DNA of 32,621 nt, taken from contig CP070755.1 of NCBI GenBank assembly GCA_020348885.1, forward strand, positions 2,408,914-2,441,534, in the 5' to 3' direction. How positions within the stretch are numbered: position 1 is the stretch's first letter; each line of letters begins with the position of its first letter. The notes below the pieces were generated by a model. It ran no database searches and was not told where the DNA came from. It saw only the letters and a list, made by a program, of their open reading frames with translations. A program made the position numbers and the translations under genes. This DNA comes from Candidatus Coatesiibacteriota bacterium (GTDB taxonomy: Bacteria; RBG-13-66-14; B26-G2; WVWN01; G020348885). Below are positions 4,221 through 25,596 of this stretch, in pieces.

Positions 4221-5483
4221 TTATTCCGTGAAACCGACCTTGATGGAGCCCAGGGACGCCGGTGTTATGTTCGTGTTGTAGTCGAAGGAGAACGAGAAAG
4301 TGTCTCTCGAGTCGAAGTCGTCGTCCGGCGCGTTACATATCACGTACCAGTAGTAGGTTATATCGTCGGTAACGTCGAAGGTGTGGGTGTATTCGATATC
4401 GGTAATGCCGGTTTCGTGGACTTCCGGCGAGCTGAAGTCGTCGTTGTCGTCCACGATGAGCTCGTACGAGTCGGCGCGGATGACCTCATCCCACTCGAAG
4501 GTTACGTCGTAGCCGGTACGCCCGCCGTCGGCGACGATAACCGGCTTGCTTCCCGTCGCCGCGCGTACGGTTTCTCCGGCGCCGCTTCTAGGCCCGGTTA
4601 CTTCGAAAACCTCGCCGTCGTCGGGTTCGTTCAGGTCAAACGACCGCGTCCAGAAACTGTATTCGTCCTCCATGTCGTGGCGCGCCAGGTCGCTCGCGGC
4701 GACGTACACGAAAACCTCGATGTAGTGCGGTAGCGGGTCGTCGGGGTTGAAGGAGTAACTCGTATCCAGGAAGTCGCCTGATAGGTTCAGGTCGCCTGGG
4801 ATGTCGCCTTTTACCAGCGTATAAACGTCCACTTCGATAGAATCTTCGTCGAGGCCGTAGTTGTCGTCTATTATGTGGCCCGATATGTTATAACTCAGGC
4901 TGACGTCGGTGTCGCCGTCTTCCGGGTTCATGTCTTCCAGGTACGGCGGGTCTTCGTCGCCGTAAATTACCGCATCAAAGGCGTCTTCGAATTCGGAATA
5001 CGTACCCCCGTAGCCCAGCTTACTCAGGTAGCAATACCCTGTCGGTCCGATGATGAACGTCTGGGGTACGCCGCTGCTGGTGGTTATCTTCCACGCGTTC
5101 CAGTCGCTAGTTTCTAGGTTAGTGAATAGAAAACGGACCGGGTTTCCGTCGAGCATGTTGAACTTCCAGTTACCGATAGCGGCCGCTGTATCCCAGCAGT
5201 CTACTTCGATAAACTCCACGCCCAGCGGGTAGTAATCGTAGTAAACGTAGTCCTCGATATCTTCGAGTTCATTATTGCAATAGGTTCAAGTATCGTAACC
5301 GAAGCTAACGAGGAAGGTCTTGTCGGCGGCGAGATAGTCGTCGACGTTGACGTACGCCCCAAGGCCGCCGCCGGCGGTAACTACCTCTGGCCGGTTCAAC
5401 GGTGGGCACTCTTCGCCCAACTCCAACGCGCCGGCGTAAACGAAGAAGCCTAACGCGATAACCGCTGCTAGAAATATCCGCAT
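4221..5483 (-). CDS. Secreted thioredoxin-fold selenoprotein candidate with Ig/FnIII-like domains (paralogue 2)
   Basis: One continuous frame of 420 residues with an internal UGA at 5286-5288, again codon 66. With UGA as Sec it reads FLVSFGYDT-U-TYC, a U-x-x-C motif after the core strand of a thioredoxin fold. Residues 1-20 are a signal peptide (MRIFLAAVIALGFFVYAGA). The fold continues with VEFIEVD, then GVPQTFIIGPTGYCY, which carries the Val-Pro cis-proline site of thioredoxins. From about residue 170 come a bacterial Ig-like domain (DMNPEDGDTDVSLSYNISG) and an FnIII-like domain (SYELIVDDNDDFSSPEV). The end is ITPASLGSIKVGFTE, the shared C-terminal motif. AGGAGG precedes the ATG at 5483. Without Sec the gene would be a 65-residue fragment plus an orphan frame lacking its active site. 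The substrate is unknown. Confidence 0.85.
5253..5288 (-). promoter_or_regulatory. Candidate bacterial SECIS hairpin, selenoprotein 2
   Basis: Downstream of the UGA a 5-bp stem, CUCGA / UCGAG (5263-5267 with 5253-5257), closes the loop AGAUA. The loop has G at its second position and lies 23 nt from the UGA. Both values fit the published description of bacterial SECIS elements as I remember it. The stem is short, so this call is weaker than that for selenoprotein 1. Confidence 0.45.
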
Positions 5484-11262: not shown

Positions 11263-12561
11263 CTATTCCAGACAATAGAAAAGCCCGTCTTCGCTGCCGA
11301 AGTAAACCCGCCCGCCGGAGACTACGGGCGTCGTTTCGACCTGGCCGCCGACCTCGAAGTTCCAGACGACCGAGCCGTCGCCGGCCGACAGGCAGGATAG
11401 GAACGTGTTGGTCCTGTGGCCGCCTTCGGTCTCGACCTTCCACCCGGAGGAGCCGAAGTAGACTCGTCCGTCGACGCACGCGGGGGAAGTTTGTACTGTC
11501 CCGTCGGCGAAATAGGGGAACGGCCGCCCCTTCCACATCAGCTCGCCGGTCTCGGCGTCCACGCAGTACATATCGCCGGGCCGGTGGTCCCGGCCGATAT
11601 AAACCTTGCCGCCAGCGACGCACGGGCGCCCGCGAAGCGGATTGTGATAGTAAACGCCGTCGTCCTCGTCCCATTCCGGGAACTCGGCCAACCAGAGTTC
11701 CTCGCCCGTGTCCTCGGAAAGACAATAGAGCCGGTGCGGTTCGGTTATATATACGCGTCCGCCCCCTACGGCGGGCAAACTGACGTCCGCGTATTCGCCG
11801 GCGTCGAATCGCCAGATTTCGTCGCCGGTGGTCGCGTCGAGTTTGTACAGGTAACCGGGGGATTCGTCGTACCGGTATTCGCAGCCGGCGTATACGTTAC
11901 CGCCATCGTATAAAACGGGTTTGACGCGGCTTCCCTCGAGGGTCGTCTCCCATATCGGGTCTCCGCCGTCGAGGGGTAGGGCTATAACTTTTTTTCCGGA
12001 AGCGGCGAACACTGCGTCCGGCGATAGAGCCGGCGATTCCCTGCCGGAACCGCCAATTAAGGAGTGAATCCAGAGAGGTTCGCCGGTTTCCGCGGAAAGG
12101 CAATAAAGGTTTCCGGGGCCGTACAAATAACATTTCCCGTCGTGAACAAGGACCGTTGAGAAAGGGTCCTCGCCCACGTCGGTGTGCCACAAGATATCGC
12201 CGTTCGCGGCGTCAAGGCAGTAAACGCCTTCCGGCTCGTCTTTCGGCCGGTCCTCGATGAACCGTTCCCACTCGGCGGTCGTCTCGCCGAGGGAAACGAC
12301 GTAGATACGACCTTGCGATATGGTGAAGTCGAAGCCCCTCAGAATTCCGGTCATACCTATTTCGGTTTTCCACGCTAGTTTGCCTTCGGGCATTGTCCCG
12401 GAATCGATGCCGCCGACGTGGGCCGGGTCCGTTACGACCGAATAGGTACCGGCGGGCATATCGCCGTCGTCATTTCGCTCCTGCCCGTTACAGGCCGGCT
12501 GGGCTATTAACGCCAACGTTAGTATCGCAACGGACGCGGGTTTGAGGAACCGTATTTGCAT
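11263..12561 (-). CDS. Secreted PQQ-like (BamB-type) eight-bladed beta-propeller protein
   Basis: 432 residues. AAGGAG lies nine bases before the ATG. The signal region MQIRFLKPASVAILTLALIAQPAC ends in a possible lipidated Cys24. The body repeats the PQQ-propeller pattern: V-x(2)-GKVY-[IV]-G/YCLD-A-x-[ND]-GD-[IE]-[LI]-W, for example VYCLDAANGDILWHTD, LYCLSAETGEPLW, YKLDATTGDEIWRF, MYCVDAETGELMWKG and LSAGDGSVVWNFEVG. No quinone-dehydrogenase catalytic residues are seen, so it is a scaffold like BamB or a related secreted binding protein. It is probably co-transcribed with the gene at 12626 (64-base gap). Two decayed C-termini of the same family lie at 7552 and 8644, showing that the family has been duplicated and lost locally. 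Confidence 0.87.
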   Translation of the reverse strand: MQIRFLKPASVAILTLALIAQPACNGQERNDDGDMPAGTYSVVTDPAHVGGIDSGTMPEGKLAWKTEIGMTGILRGFDFTISQGRIYVVSLGETTAEWERFIEDRPKDEPEGVYCLDAANGDILWHTDVGEDPFSTVLVHDGKCYLYGPGNLYCLSAETGEPLWIHSLIGGSGRESPALSPDAVFAASGKKVIALPLDGGDPIWETTLEGSRVKPVLYDGGNVYAGCEYRYDESPGYLYKLDATTGDEIWRFDAGEYADVSLPAVGGGRVYITEPHRLYCLSEDTGEELWLAEFPEWDEDDGVYYHNPLRGRPCVAGGKVYIGRDHRPGDMYCVDAETGELMWKGRPFPYFADGTVQTSPACVDGRVYFGSSGWKVETEGGHRTNTFLSCLSAGDGSVVWNFEVGGQVETTPVVSGGRVYFGSEDGLFYCLE

Positions 12562-13978: not shown

Positions 13979-14007
13979 TTGACCTTCCCTGTCACATCGC
14001 TTATTAT
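13979..14007 (+). promoter_or_regulatory. Promoter of the vertex-protein/STAS operon
   Basis: TTGACC (13979-13984), a 17-base spacer and TATTAT (14002-14007). The expected start of transcription is about 14014, only some seven bases before the ATG at 14021, so the mRNA would have a very short leader that cuts into the AGGAAG ribosome binding site. Confidence 0.7.
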
Positions 14008-14020
14008 ACAAGGAAGTGAT

Positions 14021-14320
14021 ATGAGGTTAGGGCGCGTCGCGGGTACCGTCGTCTCGACGGTTAAAGACGACGGATTGAGTGGTTATAAACTTCTGTTGGT
14101 GGACGAAGCCGACGTCCGCGGCGAGGGGCTTAACCGCCATATAGTCGCGGTAGATACAGTGGACGCCGGCGTCGGCGACGTCGTCCTTACCGTCGGCGGT
14201 TCGTCGGCGCGCTTGACTCAACTCACGCGGGACCGGCCCGTGGACGCGGCGATAGTCGCCGTGGTCGAGACCCTAGAAGTCGAGGGCGAGATAACGTACC
14301 GAAAGACGGACGCGCCGTGA
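14021..14320 (+). CDS. EutN/CcmL-type microcompartment vertex protein 1 (BMC-P)
   Basis: A 99-residue protein of the EutN/CcmL family, which forms pentamers that cap the vertices of bacterial microcompartment shells. The N-terminal strand MRLGRVAGTVVST, then GYKLLLVDEA, the hallmark VAVDTVDAGVGDVVLTVGGSSAR and the closing VDAAIVAVVE all match the family in order and length. The ATG at 14021 is chosen over upstream non-ATG starts because the family sequence begins exactly there and AGGAAG precedes it. A short tail (GEITYRKTDAP) is extra. Its TGA stop overlaps the GTG start of the next gene (GTGA), so the genes are coupled. No BMC-H/T shell genes are seen in the window, so the usual shell role is uncertain. 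Confidence 0.9.
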   Translation: MRLGRVAGTVVSTVKDDGLSGYKLLLVDEADVRGEGLNRHIVAVDTVDAGVGDVVLTVGGSSARLTQLTRDRPVDAAIVAVVETLEVEGEITYRKTDAP

Positions 14321-14568
14321 GATTGGGTCGCGTCGTCGGGACTTGCGTTGTTTCCGCGTGCGTCGAAGAGTACGAGGGCAGAAAACTCCTCGTAATCGAA
14401 CCGGTTAGCCGAGAGATGAAGCCTGAGGGTCGTCCGTTTGTGGCGGTGGACGCTGCCGGCGCCGGTTCTGGTTCCGAGGTCATTTGGATAGGCGGCCGCG
14501 AAGCCTGCTACGCGACCCAAGAAGTGGTACCGGCGGACGCGGCCGTGGTCGCCATCTGGGAGCCGTAG
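14317..14568 (+). CDS. EutN/CcmL-type microcompartment vertex protein 2 (BMC-P)
   Basis: 83 residues starting at a GTG that overlaps the previous stop. It carries the same fold markers: MRLGRVVGTCVVSACV, GRKLLVIEPVS, VAVDAAGAGSGSEVIWIGG and the C-terminal strand ADAAVVAIWEP. In the hallmark region Ala replaces the usual Thr or Val after VD, and a Cys lies after the Arg (REACYATQ), so this copy has diverged in the pore-lining loop. The length is normal for BMC-P. Being the second of three different vertex paralogues suggests either hetero-pentamers or specialised vertices. Confidence 0.88.
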   Translation: MRLGRVVGTCVVSACVEEYEGRKLLVIEPVSREMKPEGRPFVAVDAAGAGSGSEVIWIGGREACYATQEVVPADAAVVAIWEP

Positions 14569-14573
14569 GAAGT

Positions 14574-14843
14574 ATGTACATCGCGAATGTTGAGGGGCCG
14601 GCCGTTTCGAACGTGAAGCACGAGGTTCTGGCCGGTCGTAAGTTGTTGGTCGTTCGCCCTTCGAACGCGGACGGCGAGCCCGTCGGCGAGTCTATGGTCG
14701 CGATAGACACTGTGGACGCCGGCCTGGGTGACACGGCCTTGGTAATGCGTGAGGGCCGTTCCGCGGCCGCTCTGGTGGGTAAAGAGTACATACCGGTACG
14801 TACATTAATCGTGGGTATCGTTGACCGGGTCGACGCGAAATGA
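14574..14843 (+). CDS. EutN/CcmL-type microcompartment vertex protein 3 (BMC-P)
   Basis: 89 residues from the ATG at 14574, five bases after the previous stop, with AGGAAG-like sequence spanning the junction. The N-terminus is divergent (MYIANVEGPAVSNVKHE), then AGRKLLVVRPSN, MVAIDTVDAGLGDTALVMREGRSA and VRTLIVGIVDRVDA restore the EutN/CcmL pattern. The insertion in strand order is like the longer vertex proteins of other shells. Its stop overlaps the ATG of the STAS-TPR gene (ATGA), tying the vertex proteins and the STAS proteins into one translationally coupled operon. Confidence 0.88.
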   Translation: MYIANVEGPAVSNVKHEVLAGRKLLVVRPSNADGEPVGESMVAIDTVDAGLGDTALVMREGRSAAALVGKEYIPVRTLIVGIVDRVDAK

Positions 14844-16375
14844 ATGATTTTCCTATTAGCGTGAGTAGGGACGGCGCGACCGGTATTACGACGGTCGAGC
14901 TGTCTCCTTATCTCGGCGTCGACCGGGCTGAGGAGTTGGGGCGGGCTTTCGAGATTGCTCTGGCAGACGAGCGCCCGCTGATCGTTGTTGGAATGGAGAA
15001 CGTAAGCTTCCTTTGCAGTTCGGCTATTGGTAAGCTTATTTCGGCTGTGGGTAAGGCCAGAGAAAAAAGCGGCGCCGTCGTTTTCAGCGACATACCGCCC
15101 AAGATACGTACGGTGCTCGGCTACCTCGACGGATTGGATTATATAGATTACGCGGGCGGTCGTCGCGAGGCGGAGAACAAGGTTTTGGCGTTGGCCGAGT
15201 CTAACGGCGCCGGTGTCATAAAGGACGTAAACGCCGCGTTGGCGGAAGCCATCGCGTTGAATAAAGCGGGCGACACGGAAGCGGCCGCAAGGTTATTGAA
15301 ACGTATCCTCGAGTTGGAGCCGGAGAACGCCGGCGCGTTGGTCTGGTACGCGGACGTCAAGGAGAAAACGGGCGAAGTCGATTACGCACGCGAGTTGTTC
15401 AGACGGGCGAGCGAGATAGTTACGCCGGCTGACGGGTTGTACGAATACCTGGACGCCCGGTTGAAAAGGTTGGACGGGCGGGAAACTTTCGACGACGAAG
15501 TTACCGAAAAAGCGGTTCGGTCCCTTGGCGCGGGCGAGCTACCACCGTCGCCTTACGTTTCTTCGGAGCGCGGTCTTACGGCCCGGACAAAACTGTTTTT
15601 TTCGTCCTTTCGTCCGGCTTACGAAGGGCTTGGGGGTCGGGACGACGGTTCCGAAACGTACGGAGGGTATTTTCTGGCCGCGGCCGGTCTCGGCCTCGTT
15701 ATCGACCCAGGCGTCGGGTTCGTCGAATCTTTCTCCCGGTACGGCGGCACGGCAGGCGACGTGGACGTTTTGATGGTAACACGTTTCTCAGGTTCTTCGG
15801 ACGGTGACCTGACGCGCGTTTTAGACGCCGCCGCACTGAGCGAACGAGATGGTGTGAAGGTTTACGCTAACCGTACGGCGTATAAGTACTATTACACGCT
15901 CCTGAACGACTACGGGGACGCGGTGGCGGAGGTGGCTTTGGCCGAACCGGGCGAAAGCTTTACGGTCGGCGACGTAACCGTTACACCTATTCCCATACGT
16001 TTCGAAGAGCGGTTCGGCGGAAAAGAAGCGTTAGGGTTGATAATAAAAACGGATAAGTTCGTCGTGGGGTACGTAGGCGAACCCAATCGTTTAGAGATGG
16101 GCGATGTGGACGATTGGTTGCCTGTACGCGGCGGGTTGTTTGTGTTCGGATTGGACGTTAGGTCCGGGAAACGGCCGAGCTTGAAAGATTATTTACGGTT
16201 CGTTTCGATAGTTAAACCGGCCGCGATACTGTGTTCCGGCCGCGCGCCTTTGAGTTATTTACAGTCGTTCGCGGATACCCTGGCTCGTTTGGCAGGCACA
16301 GAGGTTTACGTGACTTGCGAGGGTACGGCGTTTGACCTGGAGGGGTCCGAGCCCGTTCCCGTTCGGGAATTGTAG
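14840..16375 (+). CDS. STAS - TPR - degenerate metallo-beta-lactamase-fold fusion
   Basis: 511 residues. Residues about 5-115 form a STAS domain (anti-sigma-factor-antagonist type): the phospho-acceptor region reads NVSFLCSSAIGKL (Ser60/61, with Cys in place of the usual Asp), then GAVVFSDIPPKIRTVLGYLDGLDYI. Residues about 130-190 hold TPR units (AAARLLKRILELEPENAGAL). From about 245 to 505 is a metallo-beta-lactamase-like fold: LGLVIDPGVGF is the strand before the metal site and FVVGYVGEPN stands where Y-x-G-D occurs. However, the metal motif H-x-H-x-D-H is replaced by TRFSGSSDGD near residue 313, so it should not bind a di-metal centre. It probably relays a phosphorylation signal by partner switching and uses the dead hydrolase fold for ligand or partner binding. 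This domain order is unusual. Confidence 0.8.
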   Translation: MNDFPISVSRDGATGITTVELSPYLGVDRAEELGRAFEIALADERPLIVVGMENVSFLCSSAIGKLISAVGKAREKSGAVVFSDIPPKIRTVLGYLDGLDYIDYAGGRREAENKVLALAESNGAGVIKDVNAALAEAIALNKAGDTEAAARLLKRILELEPENAGALVWYADVKEKTGEVDYARELFRRASEIVTPADGLYEYLDARLKRLDGRETFDDEVTEKAVRSLGAGELPPSPYVSSERGLTARTKLFFSSFRPAYEGLGGRDDGSETYGGYFLAAAGLGLVIDPGVGFVESFSRYGGTAGDVDVLMVTRFSGSSDGDLTRVLDAAALSERDGVKVYANRTAYKYYYTLLNDYGDAVAEVALAEPGESFTVGDVTVTPIPIRFEERFGGKEALGLIIKTDKFVVGYVGEPNRLEMGDVDDWLPVRGGLFVFGLDVRSGKRPSLKDYLRFVSIVKPAAILCSGRAPLSYLQSFADTLARLAGTEVYVTCEGTAFDLEGSEPVPVREL

Positions 16376-16393
16376 GTAAAGGAGGCGTTCGAT

Positions 16394-17011
16394 TTGAGCG
16401 AAGAGCGTTGTGACTATTCGTTGGAAAGGTTTCCCGAAGAGGGATATACGGTTATAGAAATCGCCGGGCATATCGGCGTCGAGGAGACAGAGGGTTTACG
16501 GAAGTGTTTCTCCAGGGAAATAAGTAACGAACGTCCGTGGATGCTGCTTAACCTGCCGGAAATATCTTTCATAAGTTCGTCGGGTATGAGCGCGCTTTTA
16601 ATGGCGGTCGCGGACGCAAGGAGTTACGGCGGCGACGTTATTTTCGTTGCTATTCCGGAAAAGGTACGTAAAGTTCTGGAGTTCCTGGATGTTCTGGATT
16701 TCATAAGGGTCGTTGATACATCGGACGAAGCTATGGGTATAATAAGCGACGGCGTCGCGAAAGCCCGAGCGCGCGCGACCGCCGGAGCTATGATAACGGT
16801 TGACAGGGAAAAGGACTTGCTTTACGAAGGTATAAATTTGTGCGAAAACGGCGAATACGAGCGTGCTCTTAAAGCTTTCGAAACGGTACTTGCCGAAAAC
16901 CCTAACAACGAACAAGCGCTGAAGTGGAAGATAACCGTTTTGGAAAGGCTCGGCCGTTTTACGGAAGCGAGGAAACTCGAATTGGAAAGTAAAATGAAAG
17001 GTGTTGACTGA
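16394..17011 (+). CDS. STAS-TPR protein
   Basis: 205 residues from a TTG at 16394, supported by GGAGG eight bases upstream. Residues about 5-110 are a STAS domain with the acceptor region EISFISSSGMSAL (Ser62 at the phosphorylation position, Asp replaced by Ser61), then GGDVIFVAIPEKVRKVLEFLDVLDFIRVVD. After a linker, about 135-200 are TPR-like helices (LYEGINLCENGEYERALKAF, ENPNNEQALKWKITVLERLG). It resembles the N-terminal half of its upstream neighbour without the hydrolase-like domain, so the two probably arose by duplication. It is expected to act as an anti-sigma antagonist or stressosome-like partner. No kinase, phosphatase or sigma factor is encoded alongside. Confidence 0.85.
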   Translation: MSEERCDYSLERFPEEGYTVIEIAGHIGVEETEGLRKCFSREISNERPWMLLNLPEISFISSSGMSALLMAVADARSYGGDVIFVAIPEKVRKVLEFLDVLDFIRVVDTSDEAMGIISDGVAKARARATAGAMITVDREKDLLYEGINLCENGEYERALKAFETVLAENPNNEQALKWKITVLERLGRFTEARKLELESKMKGVD

Positions 17012-17021
17012 GAGGTCGGCT

Positions 17022-17390
17022 ATGGCTTTTAACATAGAAGTTCAAAAGGACGTACACCCGGGCGTCGCCTTCGTATCCGTAGGCGGGCACGTTGGCGTCG
17101 AGGAAGCGGTTCAGGTCTCTAAGGCTATGGAGGAAGCGACGACCGAAGAAACGCCTTGGGTCGTCGTAAGTATGAAAGACCTCGAGTTTATATGCACCGC
17201 CGGAATAGGCGCGCTCCTATACGCGGCCGGCGGGGCTAGGCGACTAAGCGGCGACGTTATATTCATCGATTTCGGGCCGGATATTAGAAAACTCTTCGAG
17301 TTTCTCGACCTCCATGATTATGTTATTACGGCCGACAGCCTAATCGCGGCCGTACGGTTGGTGGAGGAGAAGCGCGAAGGGAAAACGTAA
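17022..17390 (+). CDS. Single-domain STAS protein (anti-sigma factor antagonist-like)
   Basis: 122 residues from the ATG at 17022, with GAGAGG upstream; a TTG at 17001 would overlap the previous gene and has no better signal. The whole protein is a STAS domain: VAFVSVGGHVGVEEA, then LEFICTAGIGALL with Thr59 at the phospho-acceptor position, then SGDVIFIDFGPDIRKLFEFLDLHDYV. It is the stand-alone, SpoIIAA/RsbV-like member of the trio. The three STAS proteins differ at the acceptor (Ser, Ser, Thr), as expected for distinct partners. It is the last gene of the operon and is followed by a strong terminator at 17498. Confidence 0.9.
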   Translation: MAFNIEVQKDVHPGVAFVSVGGHVGVEEAVQVSKAMEEATTEETPWVVVSMKDLEFICTAGIGALLYAAGGARRLSGDVIFIDFGPDIRKLFEFLDLHDYVITADSLIAAVRLVEEKREGKT

Positions 17391-17497: not shown

Positions 17498-17522
17498 CGC
17501 CCGTCGGTAACGGGCGTTTTTT
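17498..17522 (+). terminator. Intrinsic terminator of the vertex-protein/STAS operon
   Basis: Stem CGCCCG / CGGGCG with loop TCGGTAA (17498-17516), then TTTTTT. It separates this operon from the convergent kinase gene, whose stop codon is five bases further on. Confidence 0.92.
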
Positions 17523-25230: not shown

Positions 25231-25596
25231 CTAAAGGTACTTTCTCAGTTCTTCGTAAGCATCAGCCGGATCCACAAGAGTTACGTAGTCCGCCGCGCCG
25301 CCGAGTATGTTTTTCGCGTACTCGTGCTCGTCCCGCGGCGCCAGAATAAGGGCCGGAATATTATGGACTTTAGCTGGCATCAATATATCGCCGGTCGTTA
25401 GGGCGATACCGGTAGTAGGGGTTATCTTATGCAAGTAGCCTATTATGACTGAAACGCCGTCGGCGGGCGTCAGGTGGCCGCTGTATTTACCGTGGCCATC
25501 GACGCTATTACCCAGCGGCAAGGTTTCGGCGCCGGCCGCAAGTGCCCTGGTCAACAACAGTGGGTCCGTTCCCTCGAAGTAGCCGATAATGGTCAT
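25231..25596 (-). CDS. Small cytoplasmic alpha/beta protein, family not recognised
   Basis: 121 residues, GGGAGA upstream of the ATG, no signal peptide or membrane segment. The chain begins with a strand MTIIGYFEG, a helix LLLTRALAAG, and later strands VSVIIGYLH, GIALTTGDI and IPALILAP, then a helix and DYVTLVDPADAYEELRKYL. Such alternating strand-helix order fits a Rossmann or response-regulator-like fold, and LTTGDILMPAKVHNIPALIL hints at a ligand site, but the known Asp/Lys signature of receivers is not present. It lies between the secreted-protein genes and the zinc-ribbon gene. No function can be assigned. Confidence 0.6.
   Translation of the reverse strand: MTIIGYFEGTDPLLLTRALAAGAETLPLGNSVDGHGKYSGHLTPADGVSVIIGYLHKITPTTGIALTTGDILMPAKVHNIPALILAPRDEHEYAKNILGGAADYVTLVDPADAYEELRKYL

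What the first reader, a model, noticed from the sequence alone, without database searches (positions are those of the whole stretch)
14021..17390. Operon joining three microcompartment vertex proteins to three STAS proteins
Three different EutN/CcmL (BMC-P) genes are translationally coupled (GTGA, short gap, ATGA) to STAS-TPR-hydrolase-like, STAS-TPR and STAS genes, with one promoter and one terminator. No BMC-H/T shell protein or encapsulated enzyme is in the operon or the window. BMC-P proteins normally cap shells. Here they may form free pentamers working as scaffolds in a partner-switching complex, or control shells encoded elsewhere. I know of no described system with this gene set.
Basis: partly seen in the sequence, partly recalled or inferred. 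Interest (0 to 1): 0.85.

Follow-up and report, generated by a model that had tools for sequence, protein, structure and literature searches.

The report
Microcompartment vertex genes with STAS regulators
An uncultured bacterium keeps three genes for the corner pieces of a protein-shelled compartment in one operon with signalling-type proteins, an arrangement shared by its nearest relatives (which also have the rest of the shell elsewhere), suggesting that the compartment is under signal control.

Summary
In detail: three intact EutN/CcmL (BMC-P) genes overlap or abut STAS-TPR-MBL, STAS-TPR and STAS genes at 14021-17390. It is not a one-off. All 5 of 5 genomes held for the order have the triplet followed by an overlapping STAS-TPR-MBL gene and a STAS gene; 0 of 5 readable loci in the rest of the phylum do. 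The four relatives also carry an AldDH/PduL/BMC-H/BMC-T locus elsewhere and a class II aldolase near the operon. Best reading: a satellite locus of an aldolase-type metabolosome that acquired partner-switching-type STAS genes; an RsbW-like kinase and RsbU-like phosphatase are encoded elsewhere in the genome. The tempting 'shell-less genome' claim is not secured: the bin lacks BMC-H/T, PduL, aldolase and the BMC aldehyde dehydrogenase, but it is about 90% complete, built of contigs joined by 100-N runs, and a contig ends exactly where the shell locus begins in relatives. Free pentamers remain possible but unsupported. I found no paper describing a STAS/BMC-P operon.

The parts
14021..14320 (+). 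BMC-P 1 (EutN/CcmL, 99 aa)
   Evidence: Pfam PF03319 1.4e-26; best solved relative 5v74/6mzx, an EutN/CcmL protein (source organism Haliangium ochraceum recalled)
14317..14568 (+). BMC-P 2 (EutN/CcmL, 83 aa), GTG start overlapping P1 stop
   Evidence: Pfam PF03319 3.9e-20; junction
14574..14843 (+). BMC-P 3 (EutN/CcmL, 89 aa)
   Evidence: Pfam PF03319 2.5e-23
14840..16375 (+). STAS-TPR-metallo-beta-lactamase-fold protein (511 aa), ATG overlapping P3 stop
   Evidence: TPR_19 1e-8, STAS_2 4.6e-4; ortholog has STAS 4.5e-11 and Lactamase_B_2 1.2e-7; Foldseek to MBL-fold and RsbV/SpoIIAA structures
14897..15118 (+). STAS domain of that protein; Ser at the SpoIIAA phospho-site position
15239..15409 (+). 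TPR pair of that protein
15695..16156 (+). MBL-fold domain; HxHxDH metal motif not present (motif recalled, read by eye on A1)
   Evidence: boundaries carried over from the L055 ortholog
16394..17011 (+). STAS-TPR protein (205 aa), TTG start with strong ribosome-binding site; no separate counterpart in the four relatives
   Evidence: STAS 1.4e-12, TPR
17022..17390 (+). single-domain STAS protein (122 aa)
   Evidence: STAS 1.7e-8; 47-51% identical to the relatives' last gene
13979..14007 (+). sigma-70-like promoter TTGACC-17-TATTAT, candidate only
17498..17516 (+). terminator-like hairpin followed by T-run, shared with a convergent gene

Best explanation
This is a satellite shell locus of an aldolase-type bacterial microcompartment (metabolosome), to which the ancestor of this order added STAS genes of partner-switching type. 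The three BMC-P proteins are vertex pentamers for a shell whose hexamers, trimers and core enzymes are encoded at another place. The STAS proteins are made from the same mRNA as the pentamers and are reversibly phosphorylated by the RsbW-like kinase and dephosphorylated by the RsbU-like PP2C encoded elsewhere in the genome. They thereby tie shell capping or assembly, or expression of the compartment, to a signal; the TPR and degenerate MBL-fold parts act as protein-binding modules. Shown: gene identity, overlapping frames, conservation in 5 of 5 genomes of the order, presence of kinase and phosphatase in the genome, shell locus in the relatives. Inferred: a shell in this species, phosphorylation, any contact between STAS proteins and pentamers, and the direction of control.
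For: Same order triplet -> STAS-TPR-MBL -> STAS in G001-G004, with the P3/STAS reading frames overlapping in 5 of 5 (overlaps 4, 8, 8, 8, 14 nt). Those four genomes each carry BMC-H + BMC-T, PduL and a fourth BMC-P at another locus, Pfam-confirmed with AldDH and a PduS/RnfC-like protein in G004, and a class II aldolase about 2.4 kb from the end of the operon. G005 and G006, same class, have P1-P2-X-P3-aldolase without STAS (aldolase places); G058, another phylum, has P1-P2-P3-aldolase. So triplet plus aldolase looks like the older unit and STAS the addition. Sutter et al. 2021 describe the 'BMC-P triplet' and satellite loci with BMC-P plus aldolase (passages). RsbU-like (SpoIIE 8e-45) and RsbW-like (PF13581 1.7e-24) genes are in this bin, and a STAS-GAF-HD protein whose relatives sit next to that kinase. 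All 12 aligned STAS domains keep Ser/Thr at the phospho-site position (position taken from the SpoIIAA alignment, residue number recalled).
Against: No shell hexamer, PduL, class II aldolase or BMC aldehyde dehydrogenase is found in this bin, so in this species the satellite has no visible main locus. The flanks of the window locus differ from the GpsA-PlsY-Der flank of the relatives (gene names read by eye). P1 here has changed 7 of 35 residues invariant in ten other P1 proteins of the phylum, against 0-2 for each other row. No kinase or phosphatase is in the operon. No direct evidence of binding or phosphorylation.
Confidence: 0.55

Rival explanations
1. Shell-less species with repurposed pentamers: the rest of the microcompartment was lost in this lineage, and BMC-P pentamers persist as five-fold scaffolds for the STAS proteins.
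For: Bin lacks PF00936, PF06130, PF00596 and the relatives' BMC AldDH. The VIT-vWA gene that neighbours the aldolase in relatives has another neighbour here. P2 and P3 are full-length and not faster-evolving than in shell-bearing relatives, and P1 has shifted at 7 shell-invariant positions.
Against: Bin is 89.98% complete and made of contigs joined by 100-N runs (16 runs in 196 kb sampled). A gap sits inside the 3' end of PpiC, exactly where the shell locus begins in relatives. In the phylum, BMC-H is missing from 4 of 14 bins, all of them under 90% complete, and from 0 of 9 bins at 90% or more, as incompleteness predicts. Four of the missing markers (BMC-H, BMC-T, PduL, AldDH) share one locus in relatives.
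Confidence: 0.15
2. Relic: the shell is gone and the operon is a decaying remnant kept only because the STAS genes matter.
For: Same absences as above; P1 changes at conserved positions.
Against: All three BMC-P frames are intact with start/stop coupling preserved; P2 and P3 show no excess of changes.
Confidence: 0.12
3. Neighbours only: the STAS genes share a transcript with BMC-P for convenience and act in an unrelated pathway with the RsbW-like kinase and the STAS-GAF-HD protein.
For: The kinase is phylum-wide and, with its phosphatase and STAS-GAF-HD neighbours, present in genomes without STAS at the triplet such as G005 and G006.
Against: Overlap of P3 with the STAS gene is kept in 5 of 5 genomes across two families although the proteins are only about 30% identical between the families.
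Confidence: 0.18

Closest known systems
BMC-P triplet and satellite loci of metabolosomes (HO, ACI and PVM types; Sutter et al. 2021 PMC8217296, Axen et al. 2014 PMC4207490, passages read)
   Same: Three BMC-P paralogs together, apart from the main shell locus, with a class II aldolase near them in relatives; metabolosome core genes in relatives
   Different: STAS genes coupled to the triplet; 'STAS' does not occur in the main text of either paper; the main locus is not seen in this bin
Partner-switching modules (SpoIIAA/SpoIIAB, RsbV/RsbW/RsbU; structures 1auz, 6m36, 1th8)
   Same: STAS fold and Ser/Thr at the phospho-site; an RsbW-like kinase and RsbU-like phosphatase in the genome
   Different: STAS fused to TPR and a metallo-beta-lactamase-fold domain; encoded with shell vertex proteins, not with the kinase
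RNase Z/YhfI/Apyc1 metallo-beta-lactamase-fold hydrolases
   Same: Fold of the C-terminal domain
   Different: Metal-binding histidine motif absent in all 5 orthologs by eye; likely not an enzyme

Membership tests
BMC satellite locus (definition in Axen et al. 2014) | Insufficient shell gene set at the locus (only PF03319 or only PF00936) | tested here: met
   Three PF03319, no PF00936
BMC satellite locus (definition in Axen et al. 2014) | Shell genes contiguous with each other | tested here: met
BMC satellite locus (definition in Axen et al. [quoted passage not shown]
   Absent from this incomplete bin; present in 4 of 4 relatives with the same STAS operon
BMC-P triplet (Sutter et al. 2021) | Three BMC-P paralogs | tested here: met
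BMC-P triplet (Sutter et al. 2021) | One member each of the gray and orange clades plus one of another clade | not tested
   Clade reference sequences were not at hand
Functional bacterial microcompartment | BMC-H or BMC-T plus BMC-P in the genome | tested here: inconclusive
   No PF00936 in the bin, but the bin is incomplete at the expected site
Metabolosome core | Aldehyde dehydrogenase and phosphotransacylase | tested here: inconclusive
   Not found in this bin, found in relatives; bin incomplete
Partner-switching system | STAS protein with phosphorylatable Ser/Thr at the conserved site | tested here: met
   12 of 12 aligned domains
Partner-switching system | HATPase_c_2 kinase and PP2C phosphatase in the genome | tested here: met
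   Present in the genome, not in the operon; that they are the cognate pair is not shown
Partner-switching system | Phosphorylation-dependent binding to kinase or target | not testable with these tools
   needs biochemistry
Metallo-beta-lactamase hydrolase | MBL fold | tested here: met
   Lactamase_B_2 1.2e-7 in the ortholog; Foldseek E 7e-6 on a low-confidence model
Metallo-beta-lactamase hydrolase | HxHxDH metal ligands | tested here: not met
   Position reads TRFSGSS here and TGAAWDR or similar in relatives (motif recalled)

The most novel reading that the evidence does not exclude
Vertex pentamers have left the shell: in this lineage BMC-P proteins act as free five-fold platforms for STAS proteins in a phosphorylation-controlled complex, a non-compartment use of a shell protein.
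Probability: 0.12. Interest if true: 0.85.

Novelty: new variant of a known kind. Interest (0 to 1): 0.5.

Why it matters
Why many microcompartments carry three different vertex proteins when only twelve vertices need capping is an open question; Sutter et al. 2021 say it hints at an additional role for BMC-P (passage). A conserved operon that makes vertex proteins together with partner-switching-type STAS proteins offers a concrete, testable answer: vertices may be where shell assembly or opening is controlled by signalling. It would also be the first described link between this signalling class and metabolosomes, as far as my searches show.

Tried and rejected
1) 'Single closed chromosome without a shell'. 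At first looked like a clean loss with an empty site after PpiC. Rejected as proof: the assembly is contigs joined by 100-N runs, one of which lies at that very site. The order of pieces looks arbitrary: the RsbW-like gene is cut by a gap and its C-terminal part with the STAS-GAF-HD gene lies about 150 kb away, while the two are adjacent in relatives.

2) Distance of about 27 kb between satellite and main locus in G004: not usable, a 100-N join lies between. In G005 the two are on one contig about 110 kb apart (coordinates).

3) The right flank of the main locus (Kor genes) as a test of loss: in this bin KorA is preceded by an unrelated gene and then a contig end about 1 kb upstream. Not decisive, because G005 does not have Kor beside the shell locus.

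4) Pattern scan with the window STAS-TPR-MBL protein alone found no relative; with the five-row alignment it found 3 loci, all in the sister family.

5) The STAS tree has long branches for two window domains, so I do not claim where the operon STAS domains came from. My earlier idea that they were copied from the phylum's STAS-GAF-HD protein is unproven.

6) My simple ORF caller picked wrong frames in some high-GC loci (for example L053-L056 and L059-L062). Absence of STAS next to BMC-P in G009, G011 and G013 therefore rests on tblastn with the three window STAS proteins.

7) A second fold, of the G003 ortholog, came back at mean pLDDT 61.5 and was not searched.

Full report
Observation. The six genes are as described. 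The three BMC-P proteins match PF03319 well above cut-off, and P1 is closest among solved structures to 5v74/6mzx. The fourth gene encodes STAS, TPR and a C-terminal metallo-beta-lactamase-fold domain. The fold rests on Lactamase_B_2 in its ortholog and on Foldseek hits of a low-confidence model, mean pLDDT 64. The metal ligands are absent in 5 of 5 orthologs by eye.

Where the window lies. The window is one N-free contig of 32,621 bases in a bin of 2.6 Mb (G000). The bin is presented as one contig, but 16 runs of exactly 100 N occur in the 196 kb I had looked at, including immediately before and after the window. Completeness is 89.98%. The phylum has 14 genomes in the held set.

Conservation. 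G001-G004, a sister family in the same order, all have P1-P2-P3, then the STAS-TPR-MBL gene overlapping P3 by 8-14 nt, then a STAS gene 48-61 nt further. P1 is 55-64% identical to the window's, P2 45-54%, P3 48-52%, the STAS-TPR-MBL protein 29-31%. The window alone has an extra STAS-TPR gene. Other BMC-P loci of the phylum: G005 and G006 have P1-P2-X-P3-aldolase with no STAS (X is GH114-like in G005); G009, G011 and G013 have no STAS match in the fetched stretch; G007 is cut by a contig end. G008, G010 and G012 have no BMC-P. Outside the phylum I fetched BMC-P surroundings of 7 of the 9 genomes with BMC-P among 47. Only G058 gave a STAS match, about 3.2 kb upstream of its triplet and not coupled.

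The rest of the compartment. G001-G010 each have at least one PF00936 match and one PduL. In G004 the main locus is AldDH, BMC-H, PduL, fourth BMC-P, PduS/RnfC-like, TPR protein, BMC-T (order, Pfam). The class II aldolase lies about 2.4 kb beyond the operon in G001-G004, on the opposite strand, beside a VIT-vWA gene (Pfam for G004). G000 has none of PF00936, PF06130, PF00596 or a match to the G004 BMC aldehyde dehydrogenase (the last search had no positive control).

Is the shell really missing? In G001-G005 the main locus follows GcvPB-LplA-PpiC (and, for G004; names read by eye; in G001 the LplA/PpiC frames were poorly called). In G000 GcvPB-LplA-PpiC is found, but the contig ends inside the 3' part of PpiC at a 100-N run, so the expected site cannot be read. 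Across the phylum PF00936 is missing from G000 (90%), G011 (75%), G012 (70%) and G013 (88%), and from none of the 9 bins at 90% or more; G004 at 78% has it. BMC-P is in turn missing from G008 (99%) and G010 (96%). Bins here often lack one of the two loci. For real loss: the aldolase, a separate locus in relatives, is missing too, although G011 and G013 keep it, and the VIT-vWA gene has a different neighbour. I put real loss at about one in three (judgement).

Constraint on the pentamers. With G005, G006 and G009 as reference, P2 and P3 of the window are not further diverged than those of shell-bearing relatives. P1 is somewhat further (49-53% against 53-62%). It has changed 7 of 35 positions invariant in the ten other P1 proteins; each of the other rows changes 0-2 (for rows of the sister family the other three members were left out of the comparison set). 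Three of the seven changes (A46T, G48D, E53D) make residues 41-53 resemble the window's own P3, so partial gene conversion may explain them (inference). This is compatible with a changed role for P1 but does not show one.

Signalling parts. Every phylum genome has a PF13581 match; 13 of 14 have a strong one (E 2.3e-21 or better), G012 only weak ones. In the four loci read (G003, G004, G005, G006) the strong one is an RsbW-like gene between an RsbU-like PP2C gene (by eye there; Pfam SpoIIE for G000) and a STAS-GAF-HD gene. In G000 the same three genes exist but are split over two contigs. A profile of the STAS-TPR-MBL protein finds, among STAS domains of G001-G004, only the two operon proteins and that STAS-GAF-HD protein, so the operon proteins are plausible further partners of the kinase. 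All 12 STAS domains aligned (from G000, G001, G003, G004 and G005; G002 was not included) keep Ser or Thr at the phospho-site position.

Mechanism. I favour a satellite locus of an aldolase-type metabolosome in which STAS proteins made with the vertex proteins pass a phosphorylation signal to shell capping, assembly or expression. Gene structure, conservation and the presence of the other parts in the clade are shown; contact, phosphorylation and direction of control are inferred. The free-pentamer reading stays open only because no complete genome of this species is at hand.

Literature. Sutter et al. 2021 and Axen et al. 2014 (passages only) define the triplet and satellite loci and do not contain the word STAS in the main text. 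Full-text searches for BMC-P with STAS domain and EutN with STAS domain gave no paper; partner-switching with microcompartment gave one paper, where the two terms occur only in the reference list. A search for microcompartment, pentamer and anti-sigma factor antagonist gave one listed paper with all three, where the STAS domain is that of the BicA transporter. The library holds open-licence PMC papers only.

Noticed in passing
L094:19814-19913, L095:1-100, L101:10798-10897 and others (G000); L077:3266-3365 (G004): The 'single contig' genomes G000 and G004 contain runs of exactly 100 N and look like bins joined end to end in arbitrary order; statements about synteny or closure in them are unsafe.
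   Followed up: yes
L135, L136, L117, L106; in the window genome L142:6316-8485 and L143:6868-8919: Conserved trio of RsbU-like PP2C, RsbW-like kinase and STAS-GAF-HD-domain protein, read in four relatives and, split over two contigs, in this genome.
   Followed up: partly
window 14141-14179 and 14694-14732: P1 and P3 of the window share a near-identical stretch (IVAVDTVDAGVGD / MVAIDTVDAGLGD) not seen in the other P1 proteins aligned; possible gene conversion.
   Followed up: partly
L057:9683-10486 and L058:3784-4614: A secreted-looking protein gene sits between the second and third BMC-P genes in G005 and G006; Pfam GH114 for G005, the other not tested.
   Followed up: partly
L072:6407-6778: In G058, another phylum, a STAS gene lies about 3.2 kb upstream of a P1-P2-P3-aldolase cluster, with two genes between; may be chance.
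   Followed up: no
window 25231-25596; L097:4307-4672 and 4735-5100: Small family of 121-aa proteins with a GYxEGTD start, at least three copies in this genome; nature unknown.
   Followed up: no
L101:10898-10965 and about 11486-11553: A direct repeat of about 65 bases stands at the start of the piece after the PpiC gap and again about 590 bases on, suggesting an assembly break at a repeat.
   Followed up: no
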